Positions 2,514-14,146 of a DNA stretch of 64,000 bases are shown here, in pieces. This stretch comes from Streptomyces sp. SCUT-3 (GTDB taxonomy: Bacteria; Actinomycetota; Actinomycetes; Streptomycetales; Streptomycetaceae). The stretch covers positions 3,634,501 to 3,698,500 of the forward strand of contig NZ_CP046907.1 in the NCBI RefSeq assembly GCF_014083985.1. The letters run 5' to 3'. Position 1 is the first letter of the stretch. Each line of letters starts with the position of its first letter. The notes under the pieces are model-generated. The model ran no database searches, had not been told where the DNA came from, and saw nothing but the letters and a program-made list of their open reading frames with translations. The position numbers and the translations under genes were made by a program.

Positions 2514-3854
2514 CTACGGGGTCTCGGGGGTGGCGGCAGCGGCGGGCTGTTCCTGCGGGGGCCGCCGGCTCCCGGGCACCCCGGAGGTGCCGGGGGCATC
2601 GGGCACGCCGGGGGTGTCGGGCGCGCCGGGGGCGTCGGCCCGGGCCCCGGCGGCGGGGAGCGGGCGGCGCATGGACGGCGCCACGGTGATCACCACCGCG
2701 CACAGGGCGAACACCGCGGTGACGGCGCCGAAGCCGGCGGCCGGCCCCCACAGGGTCAGCGCGGTCCCGGCGGCGAGCGGGCCCAGCGGAACGACCAGGG
2801 AGGAGACGAAGGACGCCGCGCTCTGGACCCGGCCGACCAGGTCCTCGGGAGTGGCCGTGAGCAGGCTGGTGAGGAAGCCGATGTTGGCCACGGCGGCCAC
2901 CGCCAGGCAGGCCGCGACCAGGAGCCCCATGAGCAGGACGCTGCGGTGGAACAGCAGGACGCCCGCGGCCGCGGTGCAGGCCCAGCAGGTGGCGGCGATC
3001 ATCGCGCCCGGGGGGACCTTGGGGGCCACGCGGGGGGCCAGCAGGGCGCCCAGCAGCGAGCCGACGGAGGTGAGCGAGACGACGAGGCCCGCGTCGACAC
3101 CGGAGCTCCCCCCGTCGGAGGCGACGGTGAGCGCGGTGAACATCATGGCGCTGAAGGCCGCGTTCATGCCCAGGCCGAAGACGAGCAGGGCGGTGCGCAG
3201 GTAGGGCCGGCCCAGGACGAAGACGACACCGGCGGTGAGTTCCCGCCGGCTGAAGGGGGCCCTGCGGCGGGCGGGGACGGACCGCGCCCGGACCAGGGCC
3301 AGGCAGCCGACCGACAGCAGCAGCCCCACGGCCTCCGCGGCGAACGGCAGGGCCGGGTGCCACGCGAACAGCGCGCCCCCGACCGCCGGTCCGGCCAGTC
3401 GGGTGGCGGCGGACCGCGCCTGGATCCGGGAGGAGGCGGTGGCCAGCTGCTCCTCGGGCACGACGGTCCGCAGCAGGCCGAGGGCGGCCGGCCCGCACAG
3501 GCTGGTGAGCACGGCACCCGACGCGGTGACCGCCAGGATCAGCGGCAGAGGCGCGCCGCCGAGCAGCACGGCGCCCGCGAGGACGGCGGCGGCCAGGGCG
3601 ATCGCGCTCTCGCAGAGGATCACCAGCCGGCGTCGCTCGACGGCGTCGGCCAGCGCACCGCCGGGCAGCATGGTCACCAGCAGGGCGCCGACCGAGACGG
3701 TGCCGACGGCTCCCGCGACCACCGCGGAACCCGTCTGCCGCAGCACCAGCAGGGGCAGGGCGATCGAGGACAGCTGCGCGCCCAGGGTGGTCAGCAGGCC
3801 GCTGATCCACAGCAGTCGGAAGTCCCTGTTCCGGCTGAGAGGGGAGTTCTTCAT
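2514..3854 (-). CDS. MFS transporter, likely peptide exporter of the RiPP locus
   Basis: A 446-aa membrane protein of the major facilitator superfamily, MFS_3/EntS-like. The N-terminus SRNRDFRLLWISGLLTTLG is typical of this branch. About 12 hydrophobic segments follow, with an ADAVERRR loop after TM2 that matches the conserved G-x-x-x-D-x-x-x-R-R loop. The last ~45 residues are a hydrophilic Pro/Gly/Ala-rich tail with repeats such as APGAPDTPGVPDAPG, probably disordered. It sits between the precursor gene (126 nt upstream) and lanKC (31 nt downstream) on the same strand, so export of the modified peptide is the likely role; substrate is inferred from position only. ATG at 3854 has a modest GGTAGG ribosome site. 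Confidence 0.9.
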   Translation of the reverse strand: MKNSPLSRNRDFRLLWISGLLTTLGAQLSSIALPLLVLRQTGSAVVAGAVGTVSVGALLVTMLPGGALADAVERRRLVILCESAIALAAAVLAGAVLLGGAPLPLILAVTASGAVLTSLCGPAALGLLRTVVPEEQLATASSRIQARSAATRLAGPAVGGALFAWHPALPFAAEAVGLLLSVGCLALVRARSVPARRRAPFSRRELTAGVVFVLGRPYLRTALLVFGLGMNAAFSAMMFTALTVASDGGSSGVDAGLVVSLTSVGSLLGALLAPRVAPKVPPGAMIAATCWACTAAAGVLLFHRSVLLMGLLVAACLAVAAVANIGFLTSLLTATPEDLVGRVQSAASFVSSLVVPLGPLAAGTALTLWGPAAGFGAVTAVFALCAVVITVAPSMRRPLPAAGARADAPGAPDTPGVPDAPGTSGVPGSRRPPQEQPAAAATPETP

Positions 3855-4436: not shown

Positions 4437-5138
4437 TCAGTCGCCGCCCGGTGTTTCGAGCAGCTCCCTGAGCGCGTCGAGGAGTTCCAGCCCCCGGGCG
4501 CGGCCGGAGGCGCCGAGAGCACCGGCCGCGGCCGGGGCCCCGTCCGCGGGCAGGCGCGCCCCGCCCGCCGCCGCGCCGGCCATGGCCGCGGCGACGGTCT
4601 CGTCGCGCCGGTCCACCGCCACCCGCAGCGCGGCGGCCGCCTGCCGGGCGAACAGGGCGAGCAGGTCGAGCTCGCCCAGGCTGGACCTGGACTGCGGCAC
4701 GGGGTCGAGCACCTCCAGGACGCCCAGCACCCGGGTCCGGTGGATCAGCGGCGCGGCCATCAGCGACTCGGGGACGTACCGGGTGGACTCGGCCAGGTCA
4801 CGGGCGAAGGACTCCTCCCGGGCGAGATCGTCCACGATCATGGGTTCGCCGGACACGGCGACCCATCCCGCGATGCCGCGCCCCGCCGGGAAGCGGGTGC
4901 CGACCAGGAACTCCTCCCCCCGGCCGGAGACCGCCTGGAAGACCAGCTCGTCGGTCTCCTCGTCGAGCAGGAAGATCGAGCTGGCCTGGGCGCCGAAGAT
5001 GGCCCGGGCCGTTTCGACGATCGACTGCAGGAGCTCCCGCTCCACGGTGGTGTCCTGGACGCCCGGCGCGGTCGACGGGGCCGGTGCGGCCGGTGCGGCC
5101 GACGGGGCCGGCGGGGGGAAGGAGTCGGTCGGCTTCAA
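4437..5138 (-). CDS. GAF-domain sensor protein
   Basis: A 233-aa soluble protein. After a Pro/Ala-rich N-terminus (about 1-30), a GAF domain spans about residues 33-170, with the recognisable FGAQASSIFLLDEETDELVF and AGRGIAGWVAVSGEPMIVDD segments. The C-terminal ~60 residues are Ala-rich helical. GAF domains bind small ligands such as cyclic nucleotides or haem, or act as redox sensors; the ligand here is unknown. The start is TTG at 5138, overlapping the S8 protease stop (TTGA) with GAGGTGA upstream, so translation is coupled. Because a class III nucleotide cyclase is encoded two genes earlier in the same operon, a cyclic-nucleotide-reading role is possible but inferred. Confidence 0.85.
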   Translation of the reverse strand: MKPTDSFPPPAPSAAPAAPAPSTAPGVQDTTVERELLQSIVETARAIFGAQASSIFLLDEETDELVFQAVSGRGEEFLVGTRFPAGRGIAGWVAVSGEPMIVDDLAREESFARDLAESTRYVPESLMAAPLIHRTRVLGVLEVLDPVPQSRSSLGELDLLALFARQAAAALRVAVDRRDETVAAAMAGAAAGGARLPADGAPAAAGALGASGRARGLELLDALRELLETPGGD

Positions 5139-5980
5139 GAGTCACCTCGGTTGTCTGTCCGGACGTTGGCCGCGGAGAGGTAGAGCATGGTCTTGACCTG
5201 GAAGGGCGTCAGGTTCGGGTGCTTGCTCATGACGCGTGCGCACAGGCCGGTGATGAAGGGGGTCGCGAAGCTGTTGCCGGTGGTGCGGATCGTGGTGCCG
5301 CCGAGCCAGGGCACGGTCACGTTCTGCCCGGGGGCGAAGAACTCGACGGGCGGGGAGGGGTTGTACAGGTACAGGTCCGGGGCGTCCTCCTCGTGGCTGC
5401 CCACCGAGACGACGGAGGAGAAGCGCCAGGGGAAGCTCTCCACCGGGGTGTTGTGGGCGGACGCCACGACGACCGTCCGGCCGAAGTACGCCTCGTCGGC
5501 GAGGACGCGCAGCTCGTCGACGAAGCGGGACCGGGTGGTGGACAGGCTGAGGTTGATCACGTCGAACCGCTGCTCCACCGCCCAGCGCAGTCCGGCCAGG
5601 AGCACGTCGCCGGTCCCGGAGAACCTCTCCCCCAGGACGCGGACGCTGTACAGCTCGCAGTCGGGCGCGGCGCGGCGGATGATCCCGGCGCACGCGGTGC
5701 CGTGGCCGCAGGTGTCCCCGGTGTCGGTCTCCTCGATCCGCACGCCGTCCCCGTCCTTGACGGCGACGTAGGAGCCGTCGACGGTCCCGATCGCCGGATG
5801 GTCGCGTTCCACGCCGGTGTCCACGACGCAGACCCGCACCCCGGCGCCGGTGGATCCGCCCCAGGCCGCTTCGGGGGTGATCCGGCCGCCGCCGGCGACC
5901 AGCCGGATGTCCTCGGGGCCGCGGCCCCGCAGGCTCCAGGTCAGGGCGGAGCCGGCCGGGGGCGCGGATACGGTGCTCAT
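5135..5980 (-). CDS. S8 (subtilisin-like) serine protease, cytoplasmic
   Basis: A 281-aa subtilase with an intact catalytic set: Asp54 (VCVVDTGV), His93 (GHGTACAG), oxyanion Asn177 (ASAHN) and Ser237 (GNSFATP). No signal peptide and no long prodomain precede the catalytic domain, so it most likely works inside the cell. ATG at 5980 overlaps the stop of the upstream cyclase gene (ATGA), and its own stop overlaps the GAF start, so all three are tightly coupled. In a RiPP locus an intracellular S8 protease is a good candidate for leader removal, either from the 67-aa or the 52-aa peptide. That role is inferred from context, not from the sequence itself. Confidence 0.92.
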   Translation of the reverse strand: MSTVSAPPAGSALTWSLRGRGPEDIRLVAGGGRITPEAAWGGSTGAGVRVCVVDTGVERDHPAIGTVDGSYVAVKDGDGVRIEETDTGDTCGHGTACAGIIRRAAPDCELYSVRVLGERFSGTGDVLLAGLRWAVEQRFDVINLSLSTTRSRFVDELRVLADEAYFGRTVVVASAHNTPVESFPWRFSSVVSVGSHEEDAPDLYLYNPSPPVEFFAPGQNVTVPWLGGTTIRTTGNSFATPFITGLCARVMSKHPNLTPFQVKTMLYLSAANVRTDNRGDS

Positions 5981-8900
5981 CGGTTCGTCAGGCCTTCCTT
6001 CTGCGGTGCCGCGGCGTGCGGCGGGTTCCCGTGCGGCGGGTCTGCGGGCGGCGGGTCTGCGGGCGGGCGCTCTTCGAGCAGCCGGTCCCGGAGCGCGCGG
6101 GCCCGGGCGGCGCCGGCCCGGTACCCCTTGGCGTCGAACAGGAGGGCGGCCCCGGCGGCCGAGCCGGCGGCCTCCGCGGGCCGGCCCAGAGCGGCCAGCA
6201 CGTGCGCGCGGTCGAGGGCGGCGACGGCCTGCACGAGCGGGGAGTCGGTAGCGGCGGCGGAGGCCACGGCCCGGTCCGCCAGGGCGGCGGCGGGCCCGGT
6301 GGAGCCGGCCGACGCGGCGGTCCGGGCGCGCAGCCCGTCGAGGTCGGCGGACTCCGAGCACGACAGCCCCCCGTCCGGTGCGAGGGCCCGCCCGTCCGCC
6401 TCCGCCCGCCCGTCCGCCTCCGCCTCCGGCTGCCCGTGGTCCAGGGCGAGCCGGGTCAGGTCCCGGGAGATGCTGCCCAGCAGGCCGGCGTCCCCCAGCG
6501 CGTGGCACGCCTCCTCGGCCTTCAGGAGCAGCGTCCGGGCACGGTGGTGCCGGCCGGTGAGCGAGGCCGCGGAGGCGGCGAACAGCGGCACGAAGACGGC
6601 GGCCTCGGCGTAGCCGAGTTCCCCGGCGAGGCGCTCGGCCTCGGCCAGGCGGGCGGAGGCGTCCTCCCACTGCCCGTCCAGCGCGAGGAGCACGGCGAGC
6701 GGGCAGTTGAGGGTGACGCGCACGATGCGGCGCCCGGGGCCGTGCGCGTCGAGCAGCTCGCGGCAGCGGGCCACCGCCTCGGGCACCGGGGTCGGGCCGC
6801 GCCACAGGGAGATGCCCGTCGCGCCCAGGGCGGCGGCGCGTTCGGGTTCGGCGTCGGCCCGCACCGCGTGCTCCAGGGCCTCTTCCAGGAGCAGGCCCGC
6901 CGCGGCGTGCCGGCCGTCCAGCTGGTGCTGCTGGGCGAGTCTGAGGCAGGCCCTGGCCACGCCGAGGTCGTCCCCCGCGGCGCGGAAGACGGGCAGGGCC
7001 GTGCGCGCGGCGTCGGCGGCCGGGACCGCTCCGGGCCGGTCGTCGTGGACGGCCAGGGCGATCCGGGCGTGCGCCGCGTTGACTGCGTCCCCTGTGCTCT
7101 CCGCCGCCTCCAGGGCGTCCCGCAGCAGTGACCGACCCTGTTCGGCCCGGCCCGCCGCCAGCCGGGCCTCGCCGAGCCGGCGGGCCGCCTCCGCCCGGGC
7201 CGGCTCGCCCGGCCGGGACAGGGCCAGGGCGCGTTCCAGCAGGTCGGCGGCCCAGGCCAGGTCGGCCCTGGCCAGGGCCCGGGCGCCCGCCGCCGTGAGC
7301 CGCTCGCAGGCGTGCAGGCGCAGCCGGTCGGTGTGCGGGTCCGCCAGGCCCAGTTCGGCCCGGTACCGGTGGGCGCGTTCCAGGTGGCCGCCCACGGTCC
7401 CGTTCTCGGCGCCGTGCCGCTGCAGGACGAGGGCGGCCTGCTCGTGCCGTTCGGCCCGTGCCCGCTTGGCCATGCGCCGGTAGGCGACCTCCTGGACGAG
7501 GCCGCTGCTGAAGCGGAAGGGGGCCCGGCCGCCGAGGGCGCGGCGCGGGGGTTCGACCAGCCGGCGCCGGGTCAGGCTCCGCAGGACGGACGGCACCGCC
7601 GTGCCGCCGCGGGGTCCCCGCCGGCCGGACGCCGGGTCCGCGGCGCCCGCGGCGCCCGCTCCGGCCGCGGCCGCGGTCAGGTCGGCCAGTTCGTCGAGGT
7701 GGAACTCCCTGCCCAGGACGGCGGCCAGGTCCAGGGCGGTGCGCTCGGCGCGGTCCAGCGTGTCGAGCCGGGCGCCGATCAGCGCGTGGACGGTGGGCGG
7801 CAGGGCGTCCGCGGGGCACGCCTCGCCCGGTTCCCCCTCCGCCATCATCGACAGCAGCTGCTCCAGGTGGAGCGGGTTGCCCTCGGCCCGTTCCACGGCG
7901 AGGGCGGAGCCGGCCCGGTGGGCGGCCACCTCGTCCAGCCCGACCGCCAGCAGGGCGGACTCCTCCGGGGACAGGCCGGAGAGCATGAGCGCGGCCGAGC
8001 GCAGCCGTCCGCTGCCCCAGCCCGGGCGCAGGTCCGGCAGTTCGGGCCGCGCGACGCACACGACGAGCACCGCGGCCTGCTCCAGCTCCTCCAGGAGCCG
8101 GTCCAGCACGTCGAAGAGGACCGGGGAGGCCCAGTGGCAGTCGTCGACGGCCAGCACCACCGCGCGTTCCTGCGCCAGGACGGCCAGGACGTCGACGAGC
8201 GCCGCGCACGTGTCGTCCAGCGAGGGGTTGGGCGTGCCGTCGCGCAGCAGCCCCGACTCCAGGACGGCCAGCGCGGCCCGCATCTCCGAGCGGGCCGCGG
8301 CGTCGTCCTCCCCGGGCGGGAGCGCGGCCGCCAGGGCCTGGCGGAGCGCGTCGGCCAGCGGGGCGAGGCTGCCCGCGTCACCGTAGGGGCGGCAGCGCCC
8401 GGTGCCCTCCGTGACCGGCTCCCGGGCGCGGGTGCGGTCGAGCCACTCCCGCACCAGCCGGGTCTTGCCCATGCCCGCCTCGCCGTAGACGGTGACGAGG
8501 TGGGACGCCTGCTGGACGAGGGTCCGGCGCAGGAGGAGGTCCAGTTCGGCGAGTTCCGTCTCCCGGCCGACGAACGGGGTGTCGAACCTGCGGAGGGTCT
8601 CGGGGCCGTCGTCCCGCACGGCCAGCAGCCGGCGCGCGGCGACCGGTTCCGCCTTGCCCTTGAGCAGCAGCGGCCCCACCGGTTCGGTGACGGCGGCGGA
8701 GCCGGCCGCCCGCACGGTGGTGGGGCCGACCAGCACCTGCCCGGCGGCCGCGTTCTGCTCCAGGCGGGCCGCGACGTTCACCACCTCGCCGGAGACCAGG
8801 GCCTGGCGGGCCGAGGCGTCGGTGCCGGTGACGACCTCGCCGGTGTTGACGCCGATCCGCACGTCCAGCCGGACGCCGAGGTCCGCGGTCAGCTCCTCGT

Positions 8901-9273
8901 TCAGCTCCTCCAGCGCGGCCACCATCTGCAGGGCCGCGGCCAGGGCCCGGCGGGCGTCGTCCTCGTGCGTCACCGGCACGCCGAAGACGGCCATCACCGC
9001 GTCGCCGATGAACTTCTCCACCGTCCCGCCGTGGGCCTCCAGCCGGTCGCGCATCAGCGCGAAGTAGCGCAGGGTGACGGAGCGCAGGGCCTCCGGGTCC
9101 AGGCGCCCGGACAGCGCGGTGGAACCGACGAGGTCGCAGAAGACGACGGTGACCATCCTGCGCTCCTCGACGGAGCCGGGGCCGGGGCCGGCGGGGGAGG
9201 TGCGGGGGGCGCCGCAGTGCGGGCAGAACGACGCCTCGGCCGGAGTCGGACGTGCGCACGAGGTGCAGACCAT
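5977..9273 (-). CDS. class III adenylate/guanylate cyclase-AAA ATPase-TPR protein
   Basis: A 1098-aa multidomain regulator. Residues 1-22 form a zinc ribbon (C3-x2-C6, C17-x2-C20). A class III cyclase domain follows (about 38-220) with the metal-binding Asp residues in FCDLVGSTAL and FIGDAVMAVFG and the N-x-x-x-R pair in GEVVNVAARLEQ, so it may be catalytically active. Next come an AAA/NB-type ATPase (Walker A GEAGMGKTRL, Walker B VVLAVDDCHW) and a long C-terminal TPR-like helical region. Unlike many relatives it has no LuxR DNA-binding domain. ATG at 9273 has GAGG 12 nt upstream. It is 84 nt after the 67-aa peptide gene and overlaps the S8 gene, so it belongs to the same operon. It probably links an intracellular signal to the protease/GAF module. 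Confidence 0.9.
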   Translation of the reverse strand: MVCTSCARPTPAEASFCPHCGAPRTSPAGPGPGSVEERRMVTVVFCDLVGSTALSGRLDPEALRSVTLRYFALMRDRLEAHGGTVEKFIGDAVMAVFGVPVTHEDDARRALAAALQMVAALEELNEELTADLGVRLDVRIGVNTGEVVTGTDASARQALVSGEVVNVAARLEQNAAAGQVLVGPTTVRAAGSAAVTEPVGPLLLKGKAEPVAARRLLAVRDDGPETLRRFDTPFVGRETELAELDLLLRRTLVQQASHLVTVYGEAGMGKTRLVREWLDRTRAREPVTEGTGRCRPYGDAGSLAPLADALRQALAAALPPGEDDAAARSEMRAALAVLESGLLRDGTPNPSLDDTCAALVDVLAVLAQERAVVLAVDDCHWASPVLFDVLDRLLEELEQAAVLVVCVARPELPDLRPGWGSGRLRSAALMLSGLSPEESALLAVGLDEVAAHRAGSALAVERAEGNPLHLEQLLSMMAEGEPGEACPADALPPTVHALIGARLDTLDRAERTALDLAAVLGREFHLDELADLTAAAAGAGAAGAADPASGRRGPRGGTAVPSVLRSLTRRRLVEPPRRALGGRAPFRFSSGLVQEVAYRRMAKRARAERHEQAALVLQRHGAENGTVGGHLERAHRYRAELGLADPHTDRLRLHACERLTAAGARALARADLAWAADLLERALALSRPGEPARAEAARRLGEARLAAGRAEQGRSLLRDALEAAESTGDAVNAAHARIALAVHDDRPGAVPAADAARTALPVFRAAGDDLGVARACLRLAQQHQLDGRHAAAGLLLEEALEHAVRADAEPERAAALGATGISLWRGPTPVPEAVARCRELLDAHGPGRRIVRVTLNCPLAVLLALDGQWEDASARLAEAERLAGELGYAEAAVFVPLFAASAASLTGRHHRARTLLLKAEEACHALGDAGLLGSISRDLTRLALDHGQPEAEADGRAEADGRALAPDGGLSCSESADLDGLRARTAASAGSTGPAAALADRAVASAAATDSPLVQAVAALDRAHVLAALGRPAEAAGSAAGAALLFDAKGYRAGAARARALRDRLLEERPPADPPPADPPHGNPPHAAAPQKEGLTNR

Positions 9274-9357: not shown

Positions 9358-9561
9358 TCAGAAGAGCGCGCCGCCGGCGATCTCGCCGTGCGCCTGCACC
9401 TCCGGCTCGGCCTCGTCCAGCCGTGCCTTGATCTCCAGCAGCAGTTCCAGTTCGGCAGGGGCGAGGTCGCGGAAGACCTGCTGCTGCTCCTCGGGCAGGG
9501 AGCTCACGGTGAATCCGGCGGCCTCCAGGGCGGAGAGCACGCGGTCGTCGCGGGGGTTCAC
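9358..9561 (-). CDS. 67-aa 'aroma-sacti' type peptide, candidate RiPP precursor or carrier
   Basis: A small acidic protein starting at GTG 9561, which overlaps the HDO stop codon (GTGA), with AAGGAGAAGG upstream. The pattern AL-x-AAGF...LPEEQQQVF...LAPAELELLLEIKARLDEAE...EVQAH matches, from memory, the short actinobacterial proteins that databases name 'aroma-sacti cluster domain' and that occur near radical SAM genes. After the EVQAH box only nine residues remain (GEIAGGALF), which could be a short core or a C-terminal tail. There is no Cys, so a thioether (sactipeptide) product cannot form within it. Co-translation with the radical SAM and diiron enzymes suggests it is their substrate or carrier. 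Function otherwise unknown. Confidence 0.75.
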   Translation of the reverse strand: MNPRDDRVLSALEAAGFTVSSLPEEQQQVFRDLAPAELELLLEIKARLDEAEPEVQAHGEIAGGALF

Positions 9562-10385
9562 GGGTTTCCTTCTCCTTCCGGCGGGTGGGCGGGCGCTCCC
9601 GGCGGGTGGGCGGGCGCGGTGCCGCCGAGCCGGGCGAACAGGGCGGCCAGGGCGTCCGCGGTGTGCAGCGCGCTGACGGCGACCGCGCTCTCCTGCGCGG
9701 GGGTCAGGTCCAGCCGGTCGAGCAGCGCGTCCAGTTCGGCGCGGTGGCCGGTGTCGAGGACGGCGTGCTCGCGGACGGTCCGGAAGGCCGCCCGGGGCAG
9801 GCCGGTGGCCCCGGCCAGCCGGTCCGCCAGCCAGGGCGCGGGCGCGTTGCCCTCCAGTACCGCGATGTAGCCGAGCAGGCCGACGGGGTGGTGGTGCGCG
9901 ACCCAGTAGTACTGGGCGCCGACCAGCCGGGCGACGGCCGGCGGCGGGAGGGCGCGGGCGACCTCCCCGGGGTCGGCCCCGGCCCGGGCGGCGTCCTCCA
10001 GGAGCCAGCGGTCGTGCCCGCGCTCCTCCTCCGCGTGCTCGCGCAGGTAGGCGCCCAGCGGGGCGGCCACCGGGTCCCGGGGCATGGTGGAGCAGCGCTG
10101 CGCGGCCAGCTCCATGAGCGGCACGGAGGCGCGGACGACACCGTGCATGGCCCGCAGGTAAGCGGTGTACCGGGCGGTCAGGCCGCGGTCGTCCCGCCAC
10201 AGGCGGGCCGTGGCCGCGGCCAGCGCGGGCGCGGCCGGGGCCAGCTTGAGGCGCAGGACGGCGCTGCGGCGGCCGCCCCGGGCCGCGGCGGCGGGCTGCG
10301 CGGCGCCCCGGGCCGCGGCCCGCGGCGCACCCGGGGGCGTGTCGTCCACCGGGGCCGGCGGCGCGGCCGGCCGGGGCGGGGTCAC
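9558..10385 (-). CDS. haem-oxygenase-like diiron oxidase/oxygenase (HDO superfamily)
   Basis: A 275-aa protein of the 'iron-containing redox enzyme' family (Haem_oxygenas_2 fold). After a disordered Pro/Ala-rich N-terminus (1-40), the helical core shows the expected metal-ligand spread: Glu92 (PLMELAAQ), Glu121 and His124 (EEERGHDRW), Glu178 (AVLEGNAP), and His207-x3-Asp211-x2-His214 (HAVLDTGH). Members of this superfamily use a labile diiron site and O2 for hydroxylation, N-oxygenation or C-C cleavage, often in natural product pathways. GTG at 10385 overlaps the radical SAM stop and its own stop overlaps the 67-aa peptide start, so the three genes are translated as a coupled unit. The substrate is unknown; the neighbouring peptide is the natural candidate. 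Confidence 0.85.
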   Translation of the reverse strand: MTPPRPAAPPAPVDDTPPGAPRAAARGAAQPAAAARGGRRSAVLRLKLAPAAPALAAATARLWRDDRGLTARYTAYLRAMHGVVRASVPLMELAAQRCSTMPRDPVAAPLGAYLREHAEEERGHDRWLLEDAARAGADPGEVARALPPPAVARLVGAQYYWVAHHHPVGLLGYIAVLEGNAPAPWLADRLAGATGLPRAAFRTVREHAVLDTGHRAELDALLDRLDLTPAQESAVAVSALHTADALAALFARLGGTAPAHPPGAPAHPPEGEGNP

Positions 10386-11512
10386 GATGCGGCCCGGGGC
10401 GTCGGGGCCAGGGAGACCAGGTCCGCGTAGGGCGCGCAGCCGTAGCGGCGCAGCAGCGCGGCCGGTCCCGCCTCGGCCTGCAGCCGCGCCGTCTCCCGGT
10501 CCAGCAGGGCGCCGACCGGCCCGGAGCCGGCGCGGCCGGCCGCCTCGGCCGCGGCCGGGTGCTCGGGGAGCGCCCGGCAGGCCGCGCACGGCCCGCCGGG
10601 GAGGGCGTGGGCGGCGGACGGGGCGGGGGAGGCGGACGAGACGCGGTCCGCCTCGGCCCCGTGCCGGGCCCGGGCGTACGGGTGGGACGGGCCGGTGGTG
10701 CGGATCGTGCGCAGCAGGGGGGAGTCGAGGAGCCTGCGGCGGATCTGCGGCCAGCCGTCCTCGGCGACGTGCCCGAGGCGCAGGTGCCGCGGCACCGGCC
10801 GCCGGTCGACGACGTCCTGGTTGCAGCAGGCGACCACGGTGCCGTCGAAGGCGACGACGGGCCAGGCGGCCATCGGGCAGGGGCGTACCCGGCCGCCGTC
10901 CACCACCGCGGTGCGCGGGGCGGCCCAGGCCGCGGCCCGCCCCACGGGCCGGGTCTCGTTGACGAGCATGGGCACCCGGTCGTCGAACTCGCGGCGCACG
11001 GCCGCGGTCGCCTCGGCCAGGTACGGGTCGTCGGGCCCGGTCCCGGTGATGTGGAAGCTCGCCGCGGTTCCGGCGTCGAGGACGCGGTGCACCGCCCGGA
11101 AGACGCCGGCGCGCGGCACCTCCCGCTCGTGGAACGCGTCGAGGCTCGCGGAGAAGTGGTCGACGGCGGTGACCGCCTCCATGATGCGCGCCGGGACCGT
11201 TCCGTTCCGGGCGAAGAACATCCCGCTGAGCACGGCGCTGCGGGTGCCGGCGCGCCGCGCCTCCCGGGCCAGGGCGGTGACGGCCGCGGGCAGCAGGAGG
11301 GGCTCCCCGCCGGTGAACAGCACGACCCCGGGCCGGTCCGCGGGGGTGAAGGAGCGGACGAAGCCGGTCAGCGGTCCGACGCCGGTGTCCTCCCCGTCCG
11401 GTGTGGAGGAGGTGGAGCAGTGCGCGCAGCGCAGCGGGCAGCGCCGGGTGAGGGTCATCAGCAGGCCGCCGCCCGGGACCGGGCGCCGGCCGACCAGGTC
11501 GGCCAGTTCCAT
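10382..11512 (-). CDS. radical SAM enzyme with C-terminal Cys cluster region
   Basis: A 376-aa protein. The radical SAM [4Fe-4S] motif is Cys25-x3-Cys29-x2-Cys32 (CPLRCAHC), followed by the GGEP SAM-binding motif in VLFTGGEPLLL. The C-terminal half has further Cys residues (RPCPMAAW, VVACCNQD, then GGPCAACRALPEH), consistent with a SPASM/Twitch-like auxiliary cluster, although spacing is not classical. Such enzymes modify peptide side chains or backbones. ATG at 11512 with GGAGGT 6 nt upstream. It is the first gene of the minus-strand operon, reading away from the divergent SARP gene. The stop overlaps the HDO start. Expression by the SARP activator is likely but inferred. Confidence 0.92.
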   Translation of the reverse strand: MELADLVGRRPVPGGGLLMTLTRRCPLRCAHCSTSSTPDGEDTGVGPLTGFVRSFTPADRPGVVLFTGGEPLLLPAAVTALAREARRAGTRSAVLSGMFFARNGTVPARIMEAVTAVDHFSASLDAFHEREVPRAGVFRAVHRVLDAGTAASFHITGTGPDDPYLAEATAAVRREFDDRVPMLVNETRPVGRAAAWAAPRTAVVDGGRVRPCPMAAWPVVAFDGTVVACCNQDVVDRRPVPRHLRLGHVAEDGWPQIRRRLLDSPLLRTIRTTGPSHPYARARHGAEADRVSSASPAPSAAHALPGGPCAACRALPEHPAAAEAAGRAGSGPVGALLDRETARLQAEAGPAALLRRYGCAPYADLVSLAPTPRAAS

Positions 11513-12307: not shown

Positions 12308-14146
12308 ATGCCAGGGGAGAACCCGGTGTTGAGATTCTCGGTCCTCGGCCCGCTGGTGGTCGAAAGCGGTGGCCGGCCCAGGGAGCTGGGCCCGCTCAAG
12401 CAGCGCCTCGTCCTGGCGGTGCTGCTGACCCGGCCCAACACCCCGGTGCCGGTGGAGATGTTGTCCGAGGCGCTCTGGGAGGGCGAACCGCCCCGGACCG
12501 CCCGCAAGAACCTGCACGTTTACGTGTCGGCCCTGCGCAAGCTCCTGGGCGGGGCGGCCGGCTCCGACCGGATCCTCCACGGCCCCGGCGGGTACGTGCT
12601 GCGCGTCGGGGCGGGCGAGTCGGACGCGCTCCGCTTCGAGGAGCTCGCCCGCGCGGGCCGGGAGGCGCTGCGGACCGGCTCCCTGGGGCAGGCGGCGGGA
12701 CTGTTCCGCGAGGCGCTCGACCTGTGGCGGGGCCCGGCACTGGCCGACCTGACCTGCTCGGACCTGCTCCGCCGGGAGGCGGACCGGTGGGGGGAGCGGT
12801 GGCTGGACGTCTACGAGGCGTGGGCCGAGACCGCGCTGCAGCTCGGCGAGGCGGAGGCGGTGGCCGACTCCGTCGGCGAGGCCGTCGAGCGCCATCCGCT
12901 CCGCGAACGGCTCCGGGCCGCGCAGATCGCGGCGCTGGAGCGCTGCGGCCGGCGCACGGAGGCGCTGGCGGCCTACGACGACCTGCGGCAGCTGCTCTCG
13001 CGCGAGCTGGGGCTGGAGCCCAGCCCCGCCCTGAAGGCGGTGTACGGGGAACTCCTCGGGGGCGGGCCGCACGCCGCGGGGCCCTCCGGGGCGTCACCGG
13101 CCGGACGCGTCCTGCTGCCCCGGGACCTGCCGGACCTGACCGGCCGGAAGGAGCAGGTGCGGGAGCTGCTCGCCGTCCTGGGCGGCGGAGACGGCGGACT
13201 GGTCGTGCTGGCCGGTCCGACGGGGGCCGGCAAGACGGCCCTCGCGGTGCACGTGGCGCACCGGCTGGAGCGGGAGTTCCCGGACGGCCGGGTGCTGGTG
13301 AGGATGCGCGCGGAGGACGGGTCGCCCCGCCCCCGGTCCTCGGTGCTGGCGGAGCTGGCCAGGCTCTTCGGGTTCGTCGCCCGCCTCCCGCACGATCCGG
13401 AGGAGGCCGGGGCGGCCTGGCGGTCCTGGGCCGCGGGCCGCCGGGTGCTGCTGCTCCTGGACGACGCCCCCGACGAGGCCGCGGTGCAGTGCCTGCTGCC
13501 CGGGGCGGGCCGGAACTCGGTCCTGGTCACGGCCCGCAGCAGGCTGGCCGGGCTGGAGGCCGCGCACCGCGTGGAGGTGCCGCCGTTCACCGTGCCGGAG
13601 GCGCTCGAACTGCTCGGGCGCATCATCGGACGCCGGCGGCTGCTGTCGGACCCGGACGCCGCCGGCCGCGTCGTGGAGGAGGCCGGACTGCTCCCGCTGG
13701 GGATCAGGGTGGCCGGGACGAAGCTGTCGATGCTGGCCCACCTGCCGCTGGGCGAGTTCGCCGAGCGGCTCGGCCGCAACGACACGCTGCTGGACGAGCT
13801 GGCCTCGGGCGGCCTGGCCGTCCGGTCCCGGCTGGCGGGCGCGTGGCGGGACCTCGCCGGGCCGTCCCGTTCCGTCCTGCAGGCCCTCGGGGCCCTGCCA
13901 GCGCCGCGGTTCACCCTCGACGAGGCGATGGCCGCGCTCGGCCTGGGCAGGGAGGACACCCAGCGGGCTCTGGAGTCGCTGATGGAGTCGTGCACCGTCT
14001 CCGCGGCCCCGGACGCCTCCGCGGCGCACCCGGTGCGCTTCGAACTGCCCAGGGTGGTTCACCTCTTCGCCAGGGAGCGTGCGTCGGAGGCGGTGCCGGG
14101 GGGATCCCGCGGTGTCGTCGCGGTGCTGCCCAGGGCGGCGGGGTGA
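12308..14146 (+). CDS. SARP-family transcriptional activator with NB-ARC-like ATPase domain
   Basis: A 612-aa AfsR/SARP regulator. An OmpR-type winged helix (about 5-95) is followed by the bacterial transcriptional activator domain (about 100-250, with the typical DLWRGPALADL) and an NB-ARC-like NTPase (Walker A GPTGAGKTAL near 303, Walker B VLLLLDDAPD near 383). The C-terminus is short and lacks the TPR tail of AfsR. ATG at 12308 with GGAG 6 nt upstream was chosen because the conserved LRFSVLGPL start of the domain follows directly. SARPs bind direct repeats near -35 and recruit RNA polymerase, usually to activate natural product clusters. It is divergent from the radical SAM operon and most likely its pathway-specific activator. 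Confidence 0.93.
   Translation: MPGENPVLRFSVLGPLVVESGGRPRELGPLKQRLVLAVLLTRPNTPVPVEMLSEALWEGEPPRTARKNLHVYVSALRKLLGGAAGSDRILHGPGGYVLRVGAGESDALRFEELARAGREALRTGSLGQAAGLFREALDLWRGPALADLTCSDLLRREADRWGERWLDVYEAWAETALQLGEAEAVADSVGEAVERHPLRERLRAAQIAALERCGRRTEALAAYDDLRQLLSRELGLEPSPALKAVYGELLGGGPHAAGPSGASPAGRVLLPRDLPDLTGRKEQVRELLAVLGGGDGGLVVLAGPTGAGKTALAVHVAHRLEREFPDGRVLVRMRAEDGSPRPRSSVLAELARLFGFVARLPHDPEEAGAAWRSWAAGRRVLLLLDDAPDEAAVQCLLPGAGRNSVLVTARSRLAGLEAAHRVEVPPFTVPEALELLGRIIGRRRLLSDPDAAGRVVEEAGLLPLGIRVAGTKLSMLAHLPLGEFAERLGRNDTLLDELASGGLAVRSRLAGAWRDLAGPSRSVLQALGALPAPRFTLDEAMAALGLGREDTQRALESLMESCTVSAAPDASAAHPVRFELPRVVHLFARERASEAVPGGSRGVVAVLPRAAG

What the first reader, a model, noticed from the sequence alone, without database searches (positions are those of the whole stretch)
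9358..11512. Translationally coupled radical SAM-HDO-67-aa peptide trio
All three genes are linked by 4-bp GTGA overlaps. The peptide has no Cys, so a sactipeptide cannot form in it despite the usual family name. With only GEIAGGALF after the conserved domain, the protein could be a carrier or recognition partner, or its short tail could be the modified core. The HDO ligand set is complete, so O2 chemistry is expected.
Basis: partly seen in the sequence, partly recalled or inferred. Interest (0 to 1): 0.7.

Follow-up and report, generated by a model that had tools for sequence, protein, structure and literature searches.

The report
Peptide-maturation cassette with aromatic-tailed precursor
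A Streptomyces-type bacterium carries a conserved gene set in which a radical enzyme and an oxygen-using iron enzyme very probably modify the invariant last residues (ending in Phe or Trp) of a tiny protein, pointing to an uncharacterised class of gene-encoded peptide products.

Summary
A radical SAM gene, an HDO gene and a Cys-free 67-aa gene lie at 9358-11512 on the minus strand, joined by two GTGA overlaps. They belong to a conserved unit, rSAM-HDO-peptide-cyclase/ATPase-S8 protease-GAF; 60 loci keep the order of the first five. Across 56 loci the tail AGGALF has pN/pS 0.007, against 0.57 for the leader domain. All 78 peptides at HDO loci end exactly in Phe or Trp; 25 of 27 related peptides at loci without HDO do not. 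None of 18 genomes with only non-aromatic peptides holds this HDO. GG-hydrophobic-Trp tails persist in Burkholderiales, where the leader has diverged. Tail type also tracks rSAM number: AG[GA]ALF goes with one, other tails with two. The HDO has the full 3H/3C diiron ligand set; the rSAM's closest fold is the peptide epimerase EpeE. Best reading: a RiPP-type pathway in which the short C-terminal tail is the modified core, the HDO gripping the free C-terminal carboxylate and oxidising the last residue. The exact reactions are inferred. It is not a sactipeptide: no Cys, and below the StsA model's cut-off.

The parts
10382..11512 (-). radical SAM enzyme (376 aa): CxxxCxxC (C25, C29, C32) plus one predicted auxiliary cluster (C212, C229, C309, C312) and C230 aligned with the EpeE H-donor Cys223
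9558..10385 (-). heme-oxygenase-like diiron oxidase/oxygenase (HDO, 275 aa); predicted ligands E121, H124, E178, H207, D211, H214
9358..9561 (-). 67-aa precursor peptide, no Cys, NF045560 leader domain
9388..9405 (-). PEVQAH motif (residues 53-58), conserved end of leader; possible cleavage or recognition site
   Evidence: pN/pS 0.037
9361..9378 (-). AGGALF invariant C-terminal tail (residues 62-67), proposed core
   Evidence: (pN/pS 0.007)
5977..9273 (-). zinc-ribbon / class III nucleotide cyclase / AAA_16 ATPase protein (1098 aa), conserved cassette member
5135..5980 (-). S8 subtilase (281 aa), Asp/His/Ser motifs intact, no obvious signal peptide or propeptide; proposed leader protease
4437..5045 (-). 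GAF-domain protein (202 aa), present in 66 of 67 HDO loci
2514..3854 (-). MFS transporter, related protein in 39 of 67 HDO loci; possible exporter
12308..14146 (+). divergent SARP/BTAD regulator, related protein in 53 of 67 HDO loci

Best explanation
The locus is a RiPP-type maturation cassette. The 67-aa protein is the precursor: residues about 9-58 are a leader, and the last 6-9 residues (GEI-AGGALF) are the core. The EpeE-like rSAM abstracts a hydrogen in the tail, most simply a C-alpha hydrogen, giving epimerisation (EpeE's donor Cys223 corresponds to C230). The HDO binds the free C-terminal carboxylate at its diiron site, as other HDOs bind carboxylate substrates, and oxidises the terminal Phe (Trp in sister loci), most likely by desaturation or oxidative decarboxylation. 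The S8 protease then frees a short modified peptide near PEVQAH. Shown: gene unit, invariant tail and free aromatic end, strict co-occurrence with HDO, tail type tracking rSAM number, metal-ligand sets, predicted folds. Inferred: that the tail is covalently modified, the order of steps, each reaction, and the protease's role. The invariant core and the constant cyclase/ATPase partner suggest a conserved signal or cofactor rather than a diversifying antibiotic (weak inference).
For: Tail AGGALF pN/pS 0.007 against leader 0.57 and linker 1.04. 78/78 peptides at HDO loci end in F or W; 25 of 27 peptides at loci without HDO end in A, L, C, G or E, and the two exceptions (IGGLLF) come from genomes that do have the rSAM1-rSAM2-HDO-cyclase-S8 set 22-23 kb away. 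HDO absent in 18/18 genomes with only non-aromatic peptides; of 24 peptide-less or marginal genomes 21 had none and 3 had weak distant hits. Burkholderiales peptides keep VGGFVW with a diverged leader. Several peptides per cluster with variable spacers before GG..W. AG[GA]ALF tails: 59/59 without second rSAM; other tails: 18/19 with one. HDO ligands match MboA's, and carboxylate ligation of Fe1 is published for MboA, AetD, UndA, HrmI and PolF (PMC13185094). rSAM model: nine best PDB hits are EpeE. VarO is a precedent for a heme-oxygenase-like protein in RiPP maturation (PMC6511847).
Against: No product, mass shift or enzyme assay is known to me. Tail conservation could be for docking rather than modification. 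Distant rSAM-less HDO+peptide loci end in V, L, I or F, so aromaticity is not universal for this HDO family. EpeE Asp210 is not conserved, and a CC pair after G-x-V is, to my knowledge, common in SPASM-type proteins, so 'epimerase' is weak. Related genomes are not independent samples.
Confidence: 0.72

Rival explanations
1. The small protein is an unmodified recognition partner or regulatory subunit of the HDO/rSAM; AGGALF is a docking tail inserted in the HDO or rSAM, and the real substrate is a small molecule.
For: The tail is almost invariant, as a docking motif would be; the enzyme trio is conserved as a unit.
Against: Multiple peptide copies per cluster with different spacers and tails; the tail ends exactly at the aromatic residue, suiting carboxylate ligation; tail type follows rSAM number; an S8 protease without obvious signal peptide is part of the unit; sister peptides of the same domain have quite different short tails.
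Confidence: 0.18
2. Mycofactocin-like logic: the rSAM itself carries out the decarboxylation or crosslink at the C-terminal hydrophobic-aromatic pair, and the HDO acts later, for example on the released fragment. (A variant within the tail-as-core reading, so it overlaps with the best explanation.)
For: In mycofactocin one rSAM decarboxylates a Tyr and then links it to the adjacent Val (PMC8326336); here the tail also ends in aliphatic-aromatic (LF, VW, LW).
Against: No mycofactocin model among the NCBIfam matches shown; one auxiliary cluster's Cys set; the fold is closest to EpeE; rSAM-less relatives keep HDO+peptide.
Confidence: 0.2
3. It is a sactipeptide of the StsA kind, as the family name suggests.
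For: NF045560 is named after the aroma-sacti cluster; a weak match to the StsA-related model.
Against: No Cys in the window peptide; only 1 of 78 HDO-locus peptides has any Cys from the domain on; 26.8 bits against cut-off 75; the rSAM gives 17.5 bits to StsB against 625.
Confidence: 0.02
4. Pearlin-type scaffold: an amino acid is added to the C-terminus of the small protein, modified by HDO/rSAM and cleaved off.
For: Free C-terminus and modifying oxidase; a pearlin pathway uses an iron enzyme on the added residue and a protease to release it (PMC11002830).
Against: No peptide-aminoacyl-tRNA ligase among the window genes assigned by Pfam or in the conserved unit; the terminal residue is genetically fixed as F/W.
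Confidence: 0.05

Closest known systems
EpeE (YydG) epipeptide radical SAM epimerase
   Same: Best sequence-profile and fold match of the rSAM; the CC motif aligns with C222-C223, where C223 is the proposed H-donor
   Different: EpeE Asp210 not conserved; only 30 bits to TIGR04078 (cut-off 300); different precursor; HDO partner
VarO of thiovarsolin biosynthesis
   Same: Heme-oxygenase-like protein in a Streptomyces RiPP pathway, proposed to introduce a double bond in a residue (PMC6511847)
   Different: YcaO/TfuA pathway, Arg residue, repeated precursor; no rSAM among the seven genes listed as sufficient
MboA / UndA / AetD / PolF (HDOs)
   Same: 3H/3C diiron ligands; substrate carboxylate ligates Fe1 (PMC13185094); UndA and CADD among best folds after 3dde
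   Different: These act on amino or fatty acids or a small peptide, not on a ribosomal precursor; extra conserved His (H81, H117, H164, H166) here
StsA/StsB/StsC sactipeptide cluster and NCBIfam aroma-sacti domain
   Same: Leader domain family NF045560; actinobacterial rSAM RiPP setting (PMC12710340)
   Different: No Cys core; a different rSAM; HDO present; no sacti chemistry possible
Mycofactocin (MftA/MftC)
   Same: Aliphatic-aromatic pair (Val, Tyr) of a small precursor modified with decarboxylation by rSAM
   Different: No mycofactocin model matched; HDO instead

Membership tests
NCBIfam NF045560 aroma-sacti cluster domain protein | score over curated cut-off 30 | tested here: met
   70.6 bits
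StsA-related sactipeptide (NF045559) | score over cut-off 75 | tested here: not met
   26.8 bits
StsA-related sactipeptide (NF045559) | Cys in core for thioether | tested here: not met
   no Cys in 67 aa
HDO superfamily | heme-oxygenase fold | tested here: met
   AF2 pLDDT 89; 3dde, UndA, CADD among best
HDO superfamily | 3H/3C diiron ligands | tested here: met
   E121, H124, E178, H207, D211, H214, in 44-45 of 45 homologues; placed by spacing to MboA ligands, the MboA step D176-H181 being 5 against 3 here
HDO superfamily | O2-dependent oxidation of substrate | not testable with these tools
   needs enzyme assay
EpeE epipeptide epimerases | TIGR04078 cut-off | tested here: not met
   30 bits against 300
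EpeE epipeptide epimerases | H-donor Cys223 equivalent | tested here: met
   C230, 40 of 44; the exceptions are in two-rSAM loci whose second rSAM keeps CC
EpeE epipeptide epimerases | Asp210 equivalent | tested here: not met
   W217/P218 invariant at the aligned site
RiPP pathway | precursor gene next to modifying enzymes and protease | tested here: met
RiPP pathway | short peptide product carrying modifications from the precursor | not testable with these tools
   needs mass spectrometry
Mycofactocin | MftC-type rSAM | tested here: not met
   no mycofactocin model among the 25 of 28 NCBIfam matches shown

The most novel reading that the evidence does not exclude
A new RiPP class, spanning Actinomycetota, Burkholderiales and Planctomycetes, in which an HDO grips the free C-terminal carboxylate of a ribosomal precursor and oxidatively decarboxylates or desaturates the terminal Phe/Trp, next to rSAM-made D-residues, to make a conserved small signal or cofactor.
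Probability: 0.3. Interest if true: 0.8.

Novelty: new variant of a known kind. Interest (0 to 1): 0.62.

Why it matters
If true, it joins radical SAM and diiron-oxygen chemistry on one ribosomal peptide and gives HDOs a C-terminal peptide substrate with a sequence rule (G-G-x-x-Phe/Trp-COOH) that can be tested in one co-expression. It also corrects the 'sacti' label for a widespread streptomycete protein family, and the near-invariant core hints at a signal or cofactor shared by many species.

Tried and rejected
I first thought the two IGGLLF peptides without a nearby HDO (L110, L115) had replaced it by a P450, a TauD-like oxygenase and a sedolisin. A search of those genomes found the rSAM1-rSAM2-HDO-cyclase-S8 set 22-23 kb away, so replacement is rejected. 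The sactipeptide reading was rejected (no Cys). 'Aroma-sacti' gave no paper in the library, the 2023 Sts paper and the SznF structure paper are not held, and no paper found describes this trio. Whole-family HDO searches failed technically and were replaced by handle-restricted controls. A complex prediction was not possible with the single-chain tool.

Full report
Observation. The peptide is an NF045560 'aroma-sacti cluster domain' protein (70.6 bits, cut-off 30) with GEIAGGALF after the domain and no Cys. HDO: PF14518; rSAM: PF04055 with weak SPASM. The genome has one copy.

Family. NF045560 occurs over its cut-off in 87 of 395 sampled genomes of the same family, but only rarely in the rest of the phylum (4 of 396 over the cut-off, including three genomes of the same family). 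I took 95 stretches around the hits. Sixty loci of this set, the window counted, have exactly rSAM>HDO>peptide>cyclase/ATPase>S8; four more have three peptides in tandem. A GAF gene is present in 66 of 67 HDO loci, a related MFS in 39 and a SARP in 53. The 4-bp overlaps are themselves conserved: 53 of 63 at each junction, both in 47.

The tail test. In 56 codon-aligned peptides of the ALF type, AGGALF has pN/pS 0.007 (pS 0.42, so not recent identity), PEVQAH 0.037, the three residues between them 1.04, and the leader 0.57. All 78 peptides in HDO loci end in F (66) or W (12), with nothing after: GGALF 58, GGLFF 5, GGVVW 5, GGLVW 4, GALLW 3, and GAALF, GAGIF and GVGIF once each. Of 27 related peptides at loci without HDO, 25 end in A, L, C, G or E. 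The other two end in IGGLLF, and there I looked for and found the HDO elsewhere in the genome, in an rSAM1-rSAM2-HDO-cyclase-S8 set 22-23 kb away. None of 18 genomes that hold only non-aromatic peptides has this HDO. Of 24 further genomes (20 without a peptide, 4 with only marginal domain hits), three gave weak distant hits (71, 54 and 21 bits, against about 300 for family members).

Two-rSAM loci. Loci whose tail is not AG[GA]ALF carry a second rSAM between rSAM1 and HDO: 18 of 19 peptides, the exception (L112) on a cut contig; AG[GA]ALF peptides: 0 of 59. The putative H-donor Cys (C230) is present in every single-rSAM locus checked. Where rSAM1 lacks it, rSAM2 keeps the CC pair. These are correlations among related genomes and not independent events.

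Wider relatives. A scan of 84,980 species genomes with the HDO gave 80 loci. Burkholderiales (L140, L196) have peptide-rSAM1-rSAM2-HDO; in L140 the three enzyme genes overlap by 4 bp, and the peptides end ADTVGGFVW although the leader scores only 23-28 bits with my family profile. A Planctomycetaceae locus (L200) has an upstream small ORF ending NGYIYF, then rSAM and HDO. Other Actinomycetota and an acidobacterial MAG have HDO plus small protein (often with the cyclase) and no rSAM in the stretch held; those proteins end in V, L, I or F. So the HDO-peptide pair looks older than the rSAM, and the strict F/W rule holds for rSAM-containing loci.

Enzymes. HDO: AF2 model pLDDT 89; best PDB folds 3dde, UndA, TenA, CADD. 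MboA's published ligands (Glu86, His89, Glu143, His172, Asp176, His181; PMC13185094) map by motif and spacing (3, 54, 4) to E121, H124, E178, H207, D211, H214, conserved in 44-45 of 45 homologues; the last step is 3 here and 5 in MboA. D125 matches MboA Asp90. In MboA, AetD, UndA, HrmI and PolF the substrate carboxylate ligates iron, which would explain why the aromatic residue must be the free C-terminus; this link is my inference. rSAM: AF2 pLDDT 92; the nine best PDB hits are EpeE (E down to 8e-12), the next SpeY at 1e-8; a profile search agrees (1e-11). EpeE CC222-223 aligns with C229-C230 (chain numbering minus 25, my inference, consistent with the D210A entry); Asp210 does not. One auxiliary cluster's worth of Cys is invariant: C212, C229, C309, C312.

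Mechanism. I commit to a RiPP-type pathway with the tail as core (0.72 overall). Within it, HDO desaturation or decarboxylation of the terminal residue (about 0.45) and EpeE-like epimerisation by the rSAM (about 0.35) are the likeliest single reactions. The S8 protease has intact Asp, His and Ser motifs and is the candidate leader protease. No product is known to me.

Known or new. The peptide domain has an NCBI name, EpeE-type rSAMs and HDOs are known, and VarO is a precedent for a heme-oxygenase-like protein in a RiPP pathway. No paper found in the open library describes rSAM+HDO on an aromatic-tailed precursor; that library lacks most subscription papers. Hence: new variant of a known kind.

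Noticed in passing
L040, L052-L054, L059, L071, L083, L085-L087: Aroma-sacti domain peptides ending IKLA at loci without HDO; in L053 they sit beside a SARP and a different SPASM-type rSAM.
   Followed up: partly
L074, L091, L094, L099, L103: Divergent pairs of aroma-sacti peptides, one ending KLL and one ending in Cys (NVLC, NTVC, NVVC), beside cyclase/ATPase and mostly S8 genes.
   Followed up: no
L110 and L115: IGGLLF peptides lie beside a sedolisin-like protease, a P450 and a TauD-like oxygenase, 22-23 kb from the rSAM1-rSAM2-HDO-cyclase-S8 set: a larger combined cluster.
   Followed up: partly
L130/L134, L132/L136, L212: Distant precursors have an N-terminal stretch that resembles nitrile-hydratase-type leaders (DPxFRxA...; resemblance from memory, not tested).
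   Followed up: no
window 9558-10385: Besides the predicted ligands, four further His (H81, H117, H164, H166) are almost invariant in this HDO family; unexplained.
   Followed up: no
window 5977-9273: The cyclase/AAA ATPase protein accompanies the peptide even in most rSAM-less distant loci (L134-L136, L180, L202, L209, L212), so it may sense or act on the product.
   Followed up: partly
L122: A Cys-containing aroma-sacti peptide (ends AAMLCACGVWSGSGHAAE) near an S8/cyclase pair, perhaps a true StsA-like member.
   Followed up: no
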